NCBI GenBank assembly: GCA_012269655.1
Contig: JAAXJV010000303.1
Location: forward strand, 1 to 13,117
Source: Pseudomonadales bacterium
Lineage (GTDB): Bacteria > Pseudomonadota > Gammaproteobacteria > Pseudomonadales > Litorivicinaceae
Direction: 5' to 3'
Length of the DNA: 13,117 bases
In this document: positions 1 through 5,572 of the stretch, one piece after another
How positions within the stretch are numbered: the stretch's first letter is position 1
Layout: each line of letters opens with the position of its first letter
Position numbers and translations under genes: made by a program
The notes under the pieces: generated by a model
The model's database searches: none
What the model saw: only the letters and a program-made list of their open reading frames with translations
Told to the model about the DNA's origin: nothing

Positions 1-162
1 AATCGTCGTTTCAAGTCCGGATTAAGCAGTTGGCTGGATGTACTCAATGCTCAGGAAGAGCTAACTCGTACTCGAACGGCGCTGGTTCAGGCCAGAGCTA
101 CTCAGTGCCAGTCGGCACTGTTGTTGGATGAGATTACCAAGGCAGGCCACTTAGATGGATGA
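1..162 (+). CDS. TolC-family outer-membrane efflux protein, C-terminal end (partial)
   Basis: Frame 1 is open from the first base to TGA at 160-162 and encodes the last 53 residues of a protein that starts upstream of the window. The segment FKSGLSSWLDVLNAQEEL followed by a Thr/Arg/Ala/Gln-rich helix is the usual C-terminal repeat signature of TolC/LapE-type outer-membrane proteins (a G-x-x-x-x-x-D-V-L-x-A-Q-x-x-L motif at residues 7-21 of the fragment). Such trimers form the outer-membrane and periplasmic tunnel of type I secretion systems. The stop overlaps the start of the ABC transporter gene by 8 bp, which implies co-translation with it. The genes that follow encode the other two parts of the same machine, which supports the call. 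Only the extreme C-terminus is visible, so the subfamily cannot be fixed. Confidence 0.82.
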   Translation, partial: NRRFKSGLSSWLDVLNAQEELTRTRTALVQARATQCQSALLLDEITKAGHLDG

Positions 163-2275
163 CAGCATCGACCTCGCTCAGCCGTTGGGCCAGCTTGCTC
201 GCGCATTAGATCAGCTGTCTACCCACTTGGGGCAGTCGGTTACTGAGCGCCAATGGCTGTTAATCGCTGAGCAGCAGGGGCTCGGTGAAGAAGTCGATGT
301 TGATGCCTTTGGCATTGCCAAGCGGCTTTGGGGTCAGCACTTCCCCGCTGGCCGAATCGTTCCAAAGCCCTTCGAATCGTTAAGCGAGCACGAGCTGCCT
401 GCTTTGGCCATTGTTAAAGACGAGCCGGCCTTGGTTACTGGGGTATCTGAATCCGGAATTTGGGTTCGCGCGTCGGATCAGGCCCCGGCTTTGATTCCTT
501 TTGATCAGTGTGACTCAGGCGCCCTCGTGATGTCCTGCGGGCCGTCAAAGGCAATGAAAGAAGGCTTTGATGTCCAGGGGATTTTTAAGCGGGCATTTGC
601 TGCGCACCGAACACTGTTGCGCGAGGCGCTGGTGGCTTCAATCTTGGCAGGGCTATTTGGCGTCGCGTCTGCGCTTTACACCATGCAGGTATACGACCGT
701 GTGGTGCCCACGGGCGCTCTGCCCACTTTATATGTGCTGACCGCAGGCGTTTTGCTGACCCTGTTCCTTGAGTTTTTGGCAAAGCAGATTAAAACCAGCT
801 TTATCGATCGGGCCAGTGACTCCATCGATCGCTCACTGGGCCAGCTATTTTTTGAACGGGGCCTAGATTTAAGGCTGAACACGCGGCCCAAAACCGTCGG
901 GACCATGGCGGCTCAAATCAAAGGCTTCGATAGCGTTCGTCAGTTCATGATGACCAGTTTGCTGTTCTTCGGCGCGGACCTGCCCTTCGCCTTCTTATTC
1001 TTATCGGTGATTTGGTTCATCGGTGGCTCAGTGGTGCTGGTTCCTCTAATCATTCTGCCCATCGGTATTTTATTTGGCCTCAGCCTTCGCCGTCCTTTGG
1101 AAACGTACACAAAACAAAACATGACCGAGGCGAATCTCAGAAACGGTTTGTTGATCGAGTCACTTGATGGAATCGAAGGCGTCAAAGCGGCCGGCGGTAA
1201 TTCGACCTTTGCGCATCGTTGGTTTGGTTTGACCGAGGCAGTCTCGGACGGCGAGCTAAAGGTTAAGCGACTCTCGGCGCTGTCGAGTAACTTCAGCCAA
1301 TCGCTCCAGCAGCTGAGTTACGTCGGAATCGTGGCCTACGGTGCAGTGTTGGTGACCCAGGGTGAGCTGACCATGGGTGCCTTGATTGCCTGTTCAATCC
1401 TATCGGGACGAGCCTTGGGTGCATTCTCGCAATTCCCGAATATGTTGGTGCAGGCGAAGAAGTCGAAAATCGCTCTGGAAGCATTGACCGGCGCTATGCG
1501 TTTGAGTGCTGATCGTGATGGCACCCATCGCCGCGCGGTCTTGGATAAGCCAGTTGGTGCCTTGGCTTCGGATGCATTGCAGTTCGGCTATGACCCCAGT
1601 CTACTCACACTGGAATTGCCGCCGTTAGAGTTTAAGCCCGGTGAGCGGGTGGCGGTGCTGGGGTCGGTTGGCTCCGGTAAGTCGACTTTGGTGCGTTTGC
1701 TAGCGGGGTTGTATCAGCCGTCTCAGGGCAGTGTCAGATACGACGGGTATGACTTTAATTTGTTAAACCCAGACTTCCTACGAGAGCAAATCCTGTATTT
1801 GCCGCAAGAGGCCCGCCTATTTGGTGGTACCTTACGCGAGAACTTAACCCTGGGTCTGCCGATGGCGGCTGAGAGCGAGCTGGCCGAAGCCTGCGCTAAG
1901 ACCGGATTGGATCAGGTGATTGCCGGTCACCCCCATGGTTTAGAGCTCCGAATTTCCGAGGGCGGGCAGGGCCTGTCAGGCGGGCAGAAGCAGTTGGTGG
2001 CCTTTACCCGAGCGCTGTTGGCCAAACCGAGAATTGTTTTGCTCGATGAACCCATGGCATCGATGGACCGTGGGTTGGAAGAGCGCTTGATGGGTTTGCT
2101 GCTTGATGGCTTACCCAAAGACACCACGGTGATATTGGTCACTCATAAGTTACAGCATGTCCGTCGAGTCGATCGGGTCATGATTCTGGAGCGTGGCAAG
2201 TTGGTTATCGATGGGCCTTCTGCGGAAGTGATGGCCCAAATGCAACGATCTTCACCTACGGAGGGTAAGTCATGA
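155..2275 (+). CDS. Type I secretion permease/ATPase, LapB/LssB-like ABC transporter
   Basis: A 706-residue inner-membrane ABC exporter that would drive ATP-dependent export of a protein through the TolC-like channel. Residues 1-130 resemble the degenerate C39-peptidase-like domain of RTX/LapA exporters, with no evident catalytic Cys-His pair. Residues about 155-420 hold roughly six hydrophobic membrane segments and the family phrase YTMQVYDRVVP (175-185). The nucleotide-binding domain has Walker A GSVGSGKST (503-511), Q-loop Gln551, signature LSGGQ (607-611), Walker B IVLLDE (627-632, catalytic Glu632) and H-loop His664. The D-loop reads ASMD rather than the common SALD. Full length for the family. 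The start at 155 overlaps the TolC stop, and the end overlaps the adaptor gene by ATGA. A bacteriocin exporter is less likely because the peptidase residues are missing. Confidence 0.9.
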   Translation: MDDSIDLAQPLGQLARALDQLSTHLGQSVTERQWLLIAEQQGLGEEVDVDAFGIAKRLWGQHFPAGRIVPKPFESLSEHELPALAIVKDEPALVTGVSESGIWVRASDQAPALIPFDQCDSGALVMSCGPSKAMKEGFDVQGIFKRAFAAHRTLLREALVASILAGLFGVASALYTMQVYDRVVPTGALPTLYVLTAGVLLTLFLEFLAKQIKTSFIDRASDSIDRSLGQLFFERGLDLRLNTRPKTVGTMAAQIKGFDSVRQFMMTSLLFFGADLPFAFLFLSVIWFIGGSVVLVPLIILPIGILFGLSLRRPLETYTKQNMTEANLRNGLLIESLDGIEGVKAAGGNSTFAHRWFGLTEAVSDGELKVKRLSALSSNFSQSLQQLSYVGIVAYGAVLVTQGELTMGALIACSILSGRALGAFSQFPNMLVQAKKSKIALEALTGAMRLSADRDGTHRRAVLDKPVGALASDALQFGYDPSLLTLELPPLEFKPGERVAVLGSVGSGKSTLVRLLAGLYQPSQGSVRYDGYDFNLLNPDFLREQILYLPQEARLFGGTLRENLTLGLPMAAESELAEACAKTGLDQVIAGHPHGLELRISEGGQGLSGGQKQLVAFTRALLAKPRIVLLDEPMASMDRGLEERLMGLLLDGLPKDTTVILVTHKLQHVRRVDRVMILERGKLVIDGPSAEVMAQMQRSSPTEGKS

Positions 2276-3474
2276 ATTGGTTGTGGTTTACCCAGCACGT
2301 CAGCCGGGATTTTGGTGCGGCAGAGTTACGTCGCGACCTTCGCCACCGCCGCAGTGCCGTGTGGCTGGGTGTCATCGGCCTGGGTGCATTTCTGAGTTGG
2401 GCGCAGTGGGCGCAAATTGACGAGGTTACTCGGGCGACCGGCACCGTGATCGCGAGCTCAAAGACCAAGGTTGTTCAGGCCTCTGAAACCGGTGTAATTG
2501 CCGACATTCTAGTCGAGGAAGGGCAGCGAGTCCGCGAAGGTCAAGTCGTTGTGGAGCTGCGTCGGGATCAGTCCGAAAGCGTATTGGAAGAGATCCGAGC
2601 TGAACGGGCGACTTTGCTGGCCATTCAAGCGCGTCTAAATGCGGAAATCAGGGGTGGCGAGCCGATCTTCCCGGAGTTGCTGGTCGATTATCCGCAATTC
2701 TTGCAGACCCAGCAGTCGTTATTCGATTCTCGTAAGCGGGGCCTGGAAGAAGAGCTCTCCGGGATTCGACAAAGCCGAGATCTGGTAACTCGCGAGTTGT
2801 CTTTGCTCCGGCCGTTACTGGACAGCGGAGATGTCAGTGAATCGGACGTTCTTCAATTAGAGCGTCAATTGGCCGAGCTCAATGGGCGTTCTCAAAACGT
2901 TTCCAACGGTTTTATGAGTGATGCCTCTGCCGAGCTAGTTAAAGTAGAAAGCGACCTAGCCTCCGTTGAGCAGCGATTAAGTCAGTCACAGAGCCGGCTC
3001 GAACAAACCACGCTTAAAGCGCCGGTCAATGGTTTAGTAAAAAACCTTGCCGTCAACACCCTGGGTGGTGTGGTTCGGCCGGGCGAGGTCTTAATGGAGA
3101 TCCTGCCAGTCGACGATTCGCTGTTAATCGAGCTTAAAATTCCCCCGGCTGAAATCGCCTTTGTTAAAGAAGGCATGACGGCGACCATAAAAATGGATGC
3201 TTACGATTACACGATTTTCGGCGATTTGAATGGGCAGTTGACCTACGTCAGCCCAGATACGCTTCTGGATCAAACTGGCGATGAAAGCGTGCCGTTCTAT
3301 CGCGGCCAAGTCGAAAGCCTGTCTGGACGCTTCTCAAAACGCCCCGATTTTGAATTCGATATTATTCCGGGCATGACCGCCTCGGTCGAAATTAATACCG
3401 GTTCAAATACGGTCCTGAGTTACTTAACGAAGCCCTTAACAAAGACATTATCTGAAGCGCTGGCCGAGCGCTGA
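2272..3474 (+). CDS. HlyD/LapC-family periplasmic adaptor of the type I secretion system
   Basis: A 400-residue membrane fusion protein that links the ABC exporter to the TolC-like tunnel across the periplasm. It has a short cytoplasmic N-terminus, one membrane helix at about residues 29-47, then IDEVTRATGTV, the usual entry into the adaptor domain. The two halves of the lipoyl-like domain lie at about 63-96 (SETGVIADILVEEGQRVREG) and 246-279 (TLKAPVNGLVKNL, then VVRPGEVLMEILP). Between them, residues 100-245 form a Leu/Glu/Arg/Gln-rich coiled-coil hairpin. A beta-barrel region follows, ending with PGMTASVEI (366-374). The start codon lies in the ATGA overlap and has a strong GGAGGG ribosome-binding site at 2260-2265. 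The hairpin makes it slightly shorter than typical HlyD proteins. It is the last gene of the secretion unit. Confidence 0.9.
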   Translation: MNWLWFTQHVSRDFGAAELRRDLRHRRSAVWLGVIGLGAFLSWAQWAQIDEVTRATGTVIASSKTKVVQASETGVIADILVEEGQRVREGQVVVELRRDQSESVLEEIRAERATLLAIQARLNAEIRGGEPIFPELLVDYPQFLQTQQSLFDSRKRGLEEELSGIRQSRDLVTRELSLLRPLLDSGDVSESDVLQLERQLAELNGRSQNVSNGFMSDASAELVKVESDLASVEQRLSQSQSRLEQTTLKAPVNGLVKNLAVNTLGGVVRPGEVLMEILPVDDSLLIELKIPPAEIAFVKEGMTATIKMDAYDYTIFGDLNGQLTYVSPDTLLDQTGDESVPFYRGQVESLSGRFSKRPDFEFDIIPGMTASVEINTGSNTVLSYLTKPLTKTLSEALAER

Positions 3475-3498
3475 AACACCAATAAATTAAAGGGTTGC

Positions 3499-3548
3499 GG
3501 GAGCTTTACATCAGGTGCAGACCTGCGTATAGTTCGCGCTCCCTTTTT
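3499..3548 (+). terminator. Possible intrinsic terminator of the secretion unit, overlapping the S10 promoter
   Basis: GGGAGC (3499-3504) can pair with GCTCCC (3538-3543), which is followed directly by five T residues (3544-3548). The 33-nt loop contains a second perfect inverted repeat, CAGGT/ACCTG (3512-3516/3521-3525, loop GCAG). The position, 25 bp after the adaptor stop, is right for ending the secretion transcript. The loop is long for an intrinsic terminator and the same bases carry the promoter elements, so read-through or a chance repeat is possible. Confidence 0.35.
3505..3541 (+). promoter_or_regulatory. Sigma-70-type promoter of the S10-spc operon
   Basis: The -35 box TTTACA (3505-3510) and the -10 box TATAGT (3528-3533) each match 5 of 6 consensus bases and are separated by exactly 17 bp. 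The stretch after the -10 (TCGCGC, 3534-3539) is GC-rich, as in promoters of ribosomal genes that are shut down by ppGpp/DksA. An A/T-rich run (AATAAATTAAA, 3481-3491) sits where an UP element would be. Transcription should start near 3538-3541. The spacer contains a 5-bp palindrome (3512-3525). It is the only strong promoter I could find in the window, and it lies directly ahead of rpsJ. Confidence 0.72.
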
Positions 3549-3576
3549 CCGGGTGCGCTTTTGCGCCCAGAAAAAA
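3544..3576 (+). promoter_or_regulatory. Leader hairpin of the S10 mRNA
   Basis: Just after the predicted transcription start, GCGC (3555-3558) and GCGC (3563-3566) close a TTTT loop, with alternative pairing of GGG (3551-3553) to CCC (3566-3568). Outside this, five T residues (3544-3548) face the A run at 3572-3576. The hairpin ends 6 nt before the rpsJ ribosome-binding site (GGAG, 3583-3586). No T tract follows it, so it is not an obvious attenuator. Its role is unknown; it could protect the 5' end or be a remnant of the leader control known from enteric bacteria. Confidence 0.42.
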
Positions 3577-3597
3577 CAACTAGGAGAAAACGCAGCG

Positions 3598-3909
3598 ATG
3601 CAGAATCAGAAAATCCGCATTCGCCTGAAAGCGTTTGATCATCGTTTGATCGACGCCTCAGCATTGGAAATCGTGGACACCGCTAAGCGCACTGGCGCTC
3701 AGGTTAACGGTCCTATCCCTTTGCCGACGCGTAAAGAGCGTTACACCGTTCTGGTTTCACCTCACGTCAACAAAGACGCACGTGACCAGTACGAAATGCG
3801 GACTCACAAGCGGATGCTCGACATTATCGAGCCCACTGATAAGACCGTTGACGCCCTGATGAAGCTAGATCTGGCTGCAGGTGTAGACGTACAAATCAGC
3901 CTAGGCTGA
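3598..3909 (+). CDS. rpsJ: 30S ribosomal protein S10 (NusE)
   Basis: 103 residues, the same length as E. coli S10, starting [19 protein letters not shown] and ending [15 protein letters not shown]10 sits in the head of the small subunit and, as NusE, joins NusB in transcription antitermination. The central [20 protein letters not shown] (positions about 40-59) is the conserved loop that inserts into the 30S head. The frame stays open upstream to a GTG at 3553, but the conserved N-terminus and the GGAG at 3583-3586 fix the start at 3598; the 11-nt spacing from the ribosome-binding site is rather long. The gene ends with a tandem TGA TGA. It is the first gene of the operon and is followed by an unusually long spacer. 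Confidence 0.97.
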
Positions 3910-3917
3910 TGAATTAT

Positions 3918-3947
3918 CCAACCCGCCGAAAACCGGGCGGATGTTGG
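3918..3947 (+). promoter_or_regulatory. Stem-loop directly after rpsJ
   Basis: CCAAC (3918-3922) pairs with GTTGG (3943-3947) and CCGCC (3923-3927) with GGCGG (3936-3940). This leaves a two-base AT bulge and an 8-nt loop (GAAAACCG). The 10 bp are mostly GC. No T run follows, so it is not a standard intrinsic terminator. It lies 8 nt after the rpsJ stop and just before the 23S-like segment, and may be part of the same control element or an mRNA-stability structure. Confidence 0.5.
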
Positions 3948-3960
3948 CGACAAGCGGTGC

Positions 3961-4019
3961 GTGTGTTGAACCGAAAAGGGCCATAGCGGGTGAAAGCCCC
4001 GTATGCAGACGGAATGGAG
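3961..4019 (+). promoter_or_regulatory. Putative L4-responsive element resembling 23S rRNA domain I
   Basis: GGGTGAAAGCCCCGTA (3988-4003) differs at one base from the domain I segment of E. coli 23S rRNA as I remember it (GGGUGACAGCCCCGUA). Flanking bases also correspond: GTGCGTGTGTT (3957-3967), GAAAAGG (3973-3979) and CCATAG (3981-3986). This rRNA region contributes to L4 binding (and is near the L24 site). It can fold as GGGT-GAAA-GCCC (3988-3999) next to CGT/ACG (4000-4002/4009-4011). CCAT (3981-3984) can pair with ATGG (4014-4017), masking part of the rplC ribosome-binding site GGAGA (4016-4020). The element lies just before rplC-rplD, and rplD encodes L4. The resemblance is direct; the regulatory role is inferred. 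Confidence 0.55.
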
Positions 4020-4026
4020 ATAGCAA

Positions 4027-4665
4027 ATGGCTATTGGATTGATCGGTCGTAAGGCCGGAATGACTCGGGTATTCACCGAGGAGGGCGTATCAGTGCCCGT
4101 GACCGTTATTGAGGTGTCGCCCAATCGCGTCTCTCAGGTCAAAACTGACGAGACGGATGGCTACAACGCCGTTCAGCTGACAGTGGGCGAGCGCCGTCTG
4201 TCACGCGTCTCTAAGCCCGTCCAGGGTCACGTCAACAAGAATGGCGTACAAGTCGGACGTGGTTTCTGGGAGCTTCGTGCTGAAGGTCAGGATCTGCCGG
4301 AAGTGGGCAGCGAGTTGACTGTAGACGTATTTGAAGCCGGTCAAAAGGTTGACGTAACTGGCCAGTCAAAGGGTAAAGGTTTCCAGGGCGCGATTAAGCG
4401 TTGGAACTTCTCTATGCAAGACGCCACTCACGGTAACTCATTGAGCCACCGTGCTCCCGGTTCTATCGGTCAGTGCCAGACGCCAGGTCGCGTTTGGAAA
4501 GGCAAGAAGATGGCCGGTCACATGGGTGCTGAGCGCGTTACAACTCAGTCTCTAGAAATCATTCGTGTTGACGCTGAGCGCAACCTGCTGTTGGTCAAGG
4601 GTGCTGTACCCGGAGCCGAAGGCGGTGACGTGATCGTTAAGCCGACTGTCAAAATCAAGCGCTAA
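4027..4665 (+). CDS. rplC: 50S ribosomal protein L3
   Basis: 212 residues (E. coli 209). L3 is an early-assembly protein that binds 23S rRNA near its 3' end and sends an extension toward the peptidyl transferase centre. The N-terminus [16 protein letters not shown] is typical, and the central extension (about 125-165) carries [21 protein letters not shown] and [16 protein letters not shown]. Gln151 corresponds to the glutamine methylated by PrmB in E. coli; the residue before it is Cys150 where E. coli has Asn. The ribosome-binding site GGAGA (4016-4020) is well placed for the ATG at 4027. The 117-bp spacer upstream holds two RNA structures, so this gene is the likely target of feedback control. 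The rplD start follows 11 bp after its stop. Confidence 0.97.
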
Positions 4666-4676
4666 GGAGTCGAGTG

Positions 4677-5282
4677 ATGGAAATTCAAATCGCCGGCGGT
4701 GGCGCAACTCAAGTTTCAGACGACGTGTTTGGTCGCGACTTCAATGAAGCGCTGATCCACCAAGTCGTAACAGCTTTCATGGCGGGTGCTCGTCAGGGAA
4801 GCAAAGCTCAAAAGACTCGTTCTGATGTGTCAGGTGGCGGTAAGAAGCCCTGGCGTCAGAAGGGTACTGGTCGTGCCCGTGCGGGTACCATCCGTAGCCC
4901 GATCTGGCGTAGTGGTGGTGTGACCTTTGCTGCGCGTCCTCGTGACTTTGAGCAGAAAGTTAACCGTAAAATGTACCGCGCAGCCGTTCGCAGCATTCTG
5001 TCTGAGCTGGTTCGCCAAGAGCGTTTGATCGTTGTTGAAAAGCTGGAATTGGCTGAAGCCAAAACCAAGCTGATGGCAGCTAAGTTGAACGAACTGGGCT
5101 GTGAGCGTGGTGCCTTGATCGTTACTGAAGAGCTGGACGCGAACGTGTTCTTGGCTTCTCGTAACATTCCTTACGTTACTGCAGTCGACGCAGCCGGTGT
5201 TGATCCGGTCAGCCTGGTTGGTTTCGACAAAGTGGTCATGACAGTAGACGCGGTTAAGCGCCTCGAGGAGAAGCTGGCATGA
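4677..5282 (+). CDS. rplD: 50S ribosomal protein L4, probable autogenous regulator of the operon
   Basis: 201 residues, equal to E. coli L4. It binds domain I of 23S rRNA and its long loop lines the exit tunnel. In enteric bacteria free L4 also represses its own operon. The globular part includes [14 protein letters not shown] (18-31). The extended loop (about 40-95) carries [15 protein letters not shown] and [15 protein letters not shown]; Lys62 matches the E. coli Lys63 whose change gives erythromycin resistance. I chose ATG 4677 over GTG 4674 because the protein then aligns from MEI and AGGAG (4665-4669) is 7 nt away. The stop overlaps rplW by ATGA. The 23S-like element two genes upstream makes L4 the obvious candidate ligand. 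Confidence 0.97.
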
Positions 5283-5572
5283 ACCAAGAACGTATCTATC
5301 AAGTGATTGTTGCTCCGCACATCTCTGAGAAAGCGACGTTGGTAGCTGACGCTAACAACCAGTACGTTTTCAAAGTGGCGCCTGACGCAACTAAGCCTGA
5401 AATTAAAGCGGCCGTTGAGCAACTGTTCGAAGTAACAGTCACCAAGGTCAACACCGTGAACATCAAGGGCAAGACCAAGCGTACTGCGCGTGGTTTTGGT
5501 AAGCGCAACGACATCCGCAAGGCCTACGTGACCTTGGCTGAAGGCCAAGAGATCGAGCTGGGCGGCGAATAA
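5279..5572 (+). CDS. rplW: 50S ribosomal protein L23
   Basis: 97 residues (E. coli 100). L23 binds domain III of 23S rRNA beside the polypeptide exit and is the docking site for trigger factor and the signal recognition particle. The docking motif APHISEKAT is at 12-20, with Glu17 equivalent to the E. coli trigger-factor contact Glu18. The conserved [19 protein letters not shown] lies in the middle and AYVTLAEGQ near the end. The start is inside the rplD stop (ATGA, 5279-5282), and GAGGAG just upstream serves as ribosome-binding site, so L4 and L23 synthesis should be coupled. rplB follows after 10 bp. Confidence 0.96.

What the first reader, a model, noticed from the sequence alone, without database searches (positions are those of the whole stretch)
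3957..4019. 23S rRNA domain I mimic in the rpsJ-rplC spacer, a probable L4 feedback element
The 117-bp spacer holds GGGTGAAAGCCCCGTA (3988-4003), 15 of 16 bases identical to my recollection of E. coli 23S rRNA domain I (GGGUGACAGCCCCGUA). Collinear flanking similarity is also present: GTGCGTGTGTT (3957-3967), GAAAAGG (3973-3979) and CCATAG just before the hairpin. The GGGU-GNNA-GCCC hairpin fold is kept. This rRNA region is part of the L4 binding site, and L4 is encoded two genes downstream. Published work on E. coli describes L4 binding a leader that looks different from rRNA in secondary structure, and Pseudomonas aeruginosa was reported to lack that leader. An in-operon, sequence-level mimic would be a different solution to the same control problem. 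A plausible switch is visible: CCAT (3981-3984) can pair with ATGG (4014-4017), enclosing the mimic and covering part of the rplC ribosome-binding site.
Basis: partly seen in the sequence, partly recalled or inferred. Interest (0 to 1): 0.8.

Follow-up and report, generated by a model that had tools for sequence, protein, structure and literature searches.

The report
Ribosomal RNA mimic before rplC gene
Just ahead of a ribosomal-protein gene, the messenger RNA carries a short copy-like imitation of a piece of ribosomal RNA, kept in Pseudomonas, Halomonas and many relatives, which probably lets ribosomal protein L4 switch off its own production when it is in excess.

Summary
The rpsJ-rplC spacer mimics the whole 23S rRNA H18-end/H19/H20 three-way junction (E. 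coli 23S about nt 295-343), in this species with a shortened H19 arm. A covariance model built only from rplC-upstream elements of relatives finds, besides those, 23S rRNA at that very place (31 of 33 other hits fetched). The reverse model, built only from 23S, has the window site as its only match in the own genome (E 2.3e-4). Rfam's own LSU model recognises the leader in 4 of 9 leader-bearing loci tested, though not in the window itself. The leader is in 53 of 62 rplC upstreams (33 of 42 families) of the order and in 0 of 29 tested elsewhere in the class, shows compensatory changes, and abuts the rplC ribosome-binding site. Most likely function: translational feedback by L4 (rplD, next gene but one). 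Binding is untested; L24 is the main rival. The CCAT/ATGG switch is not supported (3 of 53). I found no description in Rfam or in the papers I could search; a 2024 review says the E. coli-type L4 site was not shown for Pseudomonas. New variant of a known kind (rRNA-mimicking ribosomal leader).

The parts
3505..3533 (+). sigma-70-like promoter (TTTACA-17-TATAGT) before rpsJ; would imply an rpsJ 5' UTR of roughly 60 nt
   Evidence: consensus scan: 2 promoter-like sites, 0.8 expected; same hexamers in one congener, altered in the other; inference
3598..3909 (+). rpsJ, ribosomal protein S10
   Evidence: NCBIfam NF001861 / TIGR01049
3918..3958 (+). extra hairpin (CCAA..CCGCC / GGCGG..TTGG) followed by GACAAGCGGT, seen in this family upstream of the mimic; role unknown
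   Evidence: read from alignments; fold
3958..4007 (+). 23S rRNA H18-end/H19/H20 mimic (putative L4 leader)
   Evidence: R2 match 3952-4014; R1 match 3959-4013; alignments
3958..3962 (+). outer stem 5' strand TGCGT, can pair with ATGCA 4003-4007; the 23S-like register would be 3965-3967 with 4004-4006 (one U-U mismatch here, paired GUA/UGC in both congeners)
   Evidence: read from sequence
3968..3971 (+). GAAC, as in 23S between outer stem and H19
3971..3979 (+). shortened H19-like arm CC-GAAAA-GG (longer and covarying in most relatives)
3979..3986 (+). GGCCATAG, junction strand shared with 23S of the order
   Evidence: 3981, 3982, 3985 and 3986 invariant in the 39 aligned leaders
3988..4003 (+). 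H20-like hairpin (GGG 3988-3990 / CCC 3998-4000) and GUA linker
4016..4019 (+). Shine-Dalgarno GGAG of rplC, 8 nt after the outer stem
   Evidence: read from sequence; SD-like motif in 52 of 53 leader tails
4027..4665 (+). rplC, ribosomal protein L3 (first gene controlled)
   Evidence: TIGR03625
4677..5282 (+). rplD, ribosomal protein L4 (proposed regulator)
   Evidence: TIGR03953
9018..9332 (+). rplX, ribosomal protein L24 (alternative regulator)
   Evidence: TIGR01079

Best explanation
The spacer RNA is a ribosomal-protein leader: a mimic of the 23S rRNA H18-end/H19/H20 three-way junction in domain I. Shown by sequence: the mimicry, its conservation in the order, compensatory changes, and its place (H20 stem ends 18-28 nt before the rplC start codon, beside the Shine-Dalgarno). 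Inferred: when L4 exceeds free 23S rRNA, it binds the mimic as it would bind nascent 23S, blocks 30S entry at rplC, and so lowers L3, L4 and, by coupling or mRNA decay, following S10-operon genes. New 23S transcripts compete L4 away and lift the block. It is an internal operator after the first gene, like the S8 site in the spc operon, not a 5' attenuator.
For: Model R1, built from 39 spacer elements and no rRNA, was run on 76 genomes. Of its non-leader hits 33 were fetched: 31 are 23S by blastn (76-84% to E. coli rrlH, covering H18-H20; 30 at E 2e-16 to 4e-10, G059's at 0.0019); the other two are weak (E 0.07, 0.5). R2, built only from 23S, matches 38 of 62 rplC upstreams, best 77.8 bits, and only the window site in the own genome. 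Rfam's LSU model hits the leader in O. linum, Gilvimarinus chinensis, Pseudomonas thivervalensis (3 of 6 named loci, E 1.1e-7 to 3.2e-6) and in G059 (1 of 3 further leader loci, E 9.5e-9). Covariation: 7 of 12 pairs change on both sides; 25 double-change cells against 3.7 in shuffles (0 of 500 reach it); slid controls 2-8. Present in 53 of 62 rplC upstreams, 39 of which made the model. Apart from leaders and 23S no hit in the 76 genomes is below E 0.02 (16 unfetched hits score exactly as fetched 23S copies of the same genomes). L4 represses the E. coli S10 operon and a 23S fragment competes for it (PMC10931766 section 24; PMC7186457 passages).
Against: No binding or expression data. 9 of 62 genomes lack it, so it is dispensable. 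R2 misses 15 of the 53 leaders, 12 of them in the window's sister genus, and the H19 arm is eroded in the window's family. Rfam's LSU model misses the window and 5 of 9 leader loci. The window's predicted fold is not the 23S-like fold. rpsJ lies upstream and would escape direct translational control. Other domain I binders are encoded in the same cluster (L24, L22).
Confidence: 0.75

Rival explanations
1. The mimic is bound by L24 (or L22/L29, other domain I binders of the same gene cluster) rather than L4, with the same operator logic.
For: H18-H20 is also in the reach of L24 (recalled, no call); uL22 and uL29 interact with domain I (PMC11723945 passages); rplX and rplV lie in this window.
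Against: L4 is the known regulator of this operon in E. coli and binds domain I. The window's genome shows no leader-like site at rplX (its only other match is a 16-nt one at E 0.5 on another contig).
Confidence: 0.13
2. L4 binds the mimic but acts on transcription (termination or Rho access) or on mRNA cleavage between rpsJ and rplC, not on 30S binding.
For: E. coli L4 also causes transcription termination (PMC10931766).
Against: The scan found no + strand terminator-like site in 3300-4100; a long-loop repeat GGGAGC/GCTCCC+TTTTT (3499-3548) lies before rpsJ, outside the scan's loop limit, and its first arm is absent in both congeners. The leader sits at a narrow distance from the start codon (18-28 nt after CCC in 53 leaders; 19-25 nt after CCCC in 80 named loci).
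Confidence: 0.08
3. A stray 23S fragment or chance resemblance without function.
For: A 15 of 16 match arises in 1 of 300 shuffles; the window's own fold is weak.
Against: Presence in 33 of 42 families, compensatory changes, constant position, R1/R2/Rfam matches.
Confidence: 0.02

Closest known systems
E. coli S10 leader (L4 site in the rpsJ 5' UTR)
   Same: S10 operon; proposed ligand L4; competition with 23S rRNA is part of the model
   Different: Here the site is between rpsJ and rplC and copies rRNA sequence and junction; no attenuator found. The E. coli site is a long 5' UTR whose likeness to rRNA is structural (title of Stelzl 2003 seen in a reference list, paper not held), with conservation not shown for Pseudomonas
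S8 site at rplE in the spc operon
   Same: Internal operator in a long ribosomal-protein operon; close rRNA mimic (PMC10931766 passage)
   Different: 16S rRNA and S8 there; 23S domain I and probably L4 here
L1 (rplK-rplA) leader and three-way-junction S15 leaders
   Same: rRNA mimicry visible in sequence and secondary structure, three-way junction in the S15 case (PMC10931766 passages)
   Different: Different proteins, different rRNA sites
L4-Archaeoglobi r-leader candidate (PMC7247131)
   Same: Proposed L4 leader before rplC (table row seen)
   Different: Archaeal; no rRNA mimicry was named for it in the passages seen; sequences not compared
rpsJ motif RLC-47-1 of Peptostreptococcaceae (PMC11109978)
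   Same: Leader candidate in the S10 operon (passage)
   Different: Before rpsJ, in another phylum; sequences not compared

Membership tests
rRNA-mimicking ribosomal-protein leader (general kind) | Lies in the mRNA just before a ribosomal-protein gene of the operon that encodes the ligand | tested here: met
   78 of 80 named loci pass a crude motif check for L3 downstream and S10 within 500 nt upstream
rRNA-mimicking ribosomal-protein leader (general kind) | Resembles the rRNA binding site of that protein in sequence and structure | tested here: met
   resemblance to 23S H18-H20; that this is the L4 site is literature and recall
rRNA-mimicking ribosomal-protein leader (general kind) | Compensatory base changes | tested here: met
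rRNA-mimicking ribosomal-protein leader (general kind) | Ligand binds and represses | not testable with these tools
   bench work needed
E. coli-type S10 leader | L4 site in a long rpsJ 5' UTR | tested here: not met
   the element lies after rpsJ; promoter-like site 64 nt before rpsJ, so a long 5' UTR is unlikely but was not mapped
E. coli-type S10 leader | Attenuator terminator before rpsJ | tested here: inconclusive
   no + strand terminator-like site in 3300-4100 (simple scan, loops of 3-8 only); a long-loop repeat before rpsJ is not kept in two congeners
Any Rfam 15 family | Match above gathering score | tested here: not met
   window: 0 matches up to E 1; 12 loci: at the leader only LSU_rRNA_bacteria, 4 hits of 32-39 bits, below its cut-off of 50; five weak hits to other families lie elsewhere
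23S rRNA gene fragment (pseudogene) | rRNA similarity beyond the functional site, drifting freely | tested here: not met
   model matches span about 50-66 nt in most leaders (91 nt in Gilvimarinus); compensatory changes; constant position before rplC

The most novel reading that the evidence does not exclude
The leader descends from a real piece of 23S rRNA (H18-end/H19/H20) copied into the rpsJ-rplC spacer in an ancestor of this order and kept since as an L4 operator: rRNA turned into an mRNA switch. The best-matching leaders (G059, Halomonas and Chromohalobacter; up to 77.8 bits, 66 nt on 66 model positions) fit the rRNA layout without net insertion or deletion, which favours copying over convergence but does not prove it.
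Probability: 0.4. Interest if true: 0.78.

Novelty: new variant of a known kind. Interest (0 to 1): 0.68.

Why it matters
A 2024 review states that the E. coli L4 site was not shown for Pseudomonas, leaving open how these bacteria balance the S10 operon. This gives a concrete answer for much of the order, with a simple test, and an rRNA mimic so close that Rfam's rRNA model recognises several copies. It also suggests which nucleotides of the rRNA site matter: leaders keep the junction, the H20 stem and the linkers, while the H19 and H20 loops vary in many.

Tried and rejected
Rejected: chance match; the CCAT/ATGG switch (3 of 53). Minimum-energy folding was uninformative for the window. A likeness of GGCCATAGCGG to 5S rRNA came to mind from recall and was not tested.

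A measure that failed: I counted identities in alignments whose gaps were too cheap; on checking, unrelated windows reached 37 of 49, so I discard those counts. The repeat with stricter local scores gives leaders a mean of 38.0 against their own 23S and 36.3 against other 23S, own higher in 18 of 26; 1292 control windows average 11.5, maximum 25; the lowest leader scored 22, inside the control range. This slight excess for own 23S leaves occasional recopying possible; shared ancestry would give it too.

Rows dropped: A4 used 39 of 62 rplC upstreams; left out were 9 without the element and 14 others (9 from the window's sister genus, plus L006, L009, L022, L040, L042); R1 later found all 14. 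R2 used 27 of 31 fetched 23S segments (4 left out as identical or near-identical), E. coli excluded. The class check used 29 of 52 non-own rplC matches, those given as loci.

Literature not held: Stelzl 2003, Allen 1999, Fu 2013, Meyer 2018. Novelty rests on searches, the passages seen, and Rfam; most subscription papers are not covered.

Full report
What is there. The window is an S10 operon: rpsJ 3598-3909, rplC 4027-4665, rplD 4677-5282, rplW 5279-5572, with further ribosomal-protein genes such as rplV and rplX. GGGTGAAAGCCCCGTA at 3988-4003 matches E. coli 23S from nt 325 in 15 of 16 bases; 1 of 300 shuffled spacers did as well. No 23S rRNA was found in the own assembly, so relatives had to serve.

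Conservation. rplC was found in 62 of 76 genomes, own included. Aligning the 62 upstream regions shows one element just before rplC, roughly GUGUAAC-GCUC-(loop)-GRGC-GGCCAUAGCGGGU-(2-5 nt)-AGCCCCGUACAC. A model of 39 of these (R1) matches 53 of the 62, that is 33 of 42 families by my count of the labels. The nine without it are G066, G044, G062, G048, G039, G056, G051, G041 and G055, each from a different family. In 29 genomes from elsewhere in the class R1 finds no element at rplC; its three matches (E 0.058, 1.3, 3.1) lie on the strand opposite to rplC. A pattern scan of 370 class genomes gave 9 hits (3 hits for the reversed control pattern); only the three in this order look like the element, and one leader-bearing genome of the order, G059, was missed by the pattern. 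In seven named genomes R1 finds the leader in each and, by blastn of the fetched loci, 23S in five plus a weak one (Marinobacter, E 0.02, next to masked sequence); O. linum gave no 23S hit.

Structure. On the 39-row sequence alignment 97.3% of cells pair, 7 of 12 pairs have changes on both sides (2 of 500 shuffles reach 7), and 25 cells are double changes against 3.7 in shuffles (0 of 500); sliding the partner gives 2-8. The H20-like stem hardly varies and adds no covariation.

It is a 23S mimic. R1 contains no rRNA, yet of its non-leader hits in the 76 genomes 33 were fetched and 31 align to E. coli rrlH over H18-H20; the other two were the weak E 0.07 and E 0.5 hits. Sixteen further copies with scores identical to fetched ones, and weak hits of E 0.02 and above, were not fetched. 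In the reverse direction, R2, from 27 23S segments, matches 38 of 62 upstreams and 79 of the 80 named loci (chosen by a pattern that holds the core, so not independent). In the own genome the window site is R2's only match at E<=10 (E 2.3e-4). Rfam's LSU_rRNA_bacteria model finds the leader in three of six named loci (E 1.1e-7, 3.3e-7, 3.2e-6) and in one of three further leader loci (G059, 9.5e-9), always below its gathering score; the window has no Rfam match up to E 1. The Rfam alignment maps the leader onto the three pairs at the end of H18, H19, the CAUAG turn, H20 and the GUA linker (helix names recalled).

Own against other 23S. In 26 genomes with both, local scores of the leader average 38.0 against the own 23S and 36.3 against the others, own higher in 18; controls average 11.5, maximum 25. 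There is thus no strong sign of recent recopying. An earlier identity count proved unsound and is withdrawn. Positions invariant in the 39 leaders (for example CC and AG of CCAUAG, GGGU, AG, CCC, U of GUA) overlap with those invariant in the 27 23S segments, whereas the UGGAAAG loop of 23S is kept only in some leaders.

Mechanism. The leader lies beside the Shine-Dalgarno: CCC to start codon is 18-28 nt in 53 leaders, and 52 of 53 tails have an SD-like motif. No terminator-like site was found on the + strand of 3300-4100, within the scan's loop limit. A promoter-like site at 3505-3533, kept in one congener and altered in the other, suggests a short rpsJ 5' UTR. I therefore propose translational repression of rplC by L4. 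L4 control of S10 in E. coli, competition by a 23S fragment, and conservation not shown for Pseudomonas come from PMC10931766 (section 24); 23S domain I as an L4 target from PMC7186457 (passages). That L4 touches H18-H20 in the ribosome, and that L24 sits near, is recalled. L22/L29 bind domain I (PMC11723945 passages). None is excluded by my data.

Against. The window's genus has a shortened H19 arm, one U-U mismatch in the 23S-like register of the outer stem (a 5-bp alternative TGCGT/ATGCA exists) and an uninformative predicted fold. R2 misses 15 of 53 leaders. The proposed CCAT/ATGG switch occurs only in this genus (3 of 53).

Known or new. PMC7247131 (passages) counts 35 earlier and 20 new leaders; the only rplC-associated new one seen is archaeal. 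The main texts of PMC2965389, PMC11109978 and PMC2864571 do not contain the word rplC. Key subscription papers were not held. I call it a new variant of a known kind: an rRNA-mimicking leader at a new place, copying another rRNA site at sequence level, with a wide range. On checking, the withdrawn count did not change my odds, which rest on the models.

Noticed in passing
L256:729 (+), L265:1463 (+), L270:1453 (+); G122:C1:98351, G141:C150:13892, G147:C6:206310: A second, unrelated hairpin before rplC in other gammaproteobacterial families: loop GUCAAUCGWAAU in 6 of 77 class genomes (reversed control pattern: 1 hit); in four it ends at the rplC start found, in two rplC was not checked. In the three loci read, the stem differs but stays paired. 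No Rfam match to it in those three, best likeness to E. coli 23S 9 of 12. Possibly another S10-operon leader.
   Followed up: partly
window 3918-3958: The window's family carries an extra hairpin with differing stem sequences between its two genera, followed by GACAAGCGGT, just upstream of the mimic.
   Followed up: no
window 3499-3548: Inverted repeat GGGAGC/GCTCCC with a 33-nt loop followed by TTTTT, overlapping the promoter-like site before rpsJ; the first arm is absent in two congeners.
   Followed up: partly
window 155-3474: Type I secretion permease/ATPase and HlyD-family adaptor genes lie directly before rpsJ, where I would expect the str operon (recall); the short stretch upstream of rpsJ differs in two congeners.
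   Followed up: no
L040:41-135, L009:2134-2240, L049:195-270, L055:193-272: Some leaders carry long insertions in the H19 or H20 loop while keeping the junction core, which suggests that the loop tips are not contacted.
   Followed up: partly
L008, L041, L048, L051, L056, L058, L059, L060, L061: Nine relatives lack the leader, several with a very short rpsJ-rplC spacer by eye; how they regulate the operon is unknown.
   Followed up: no
G005:C35 and L135: The unnamed relative G005 has a contig of the same length (131020) as gammaproteobacterium HIMB30 AGIG01000002.1, so the window's family is probably that of HIMB30 (inference).
   Followed up: no
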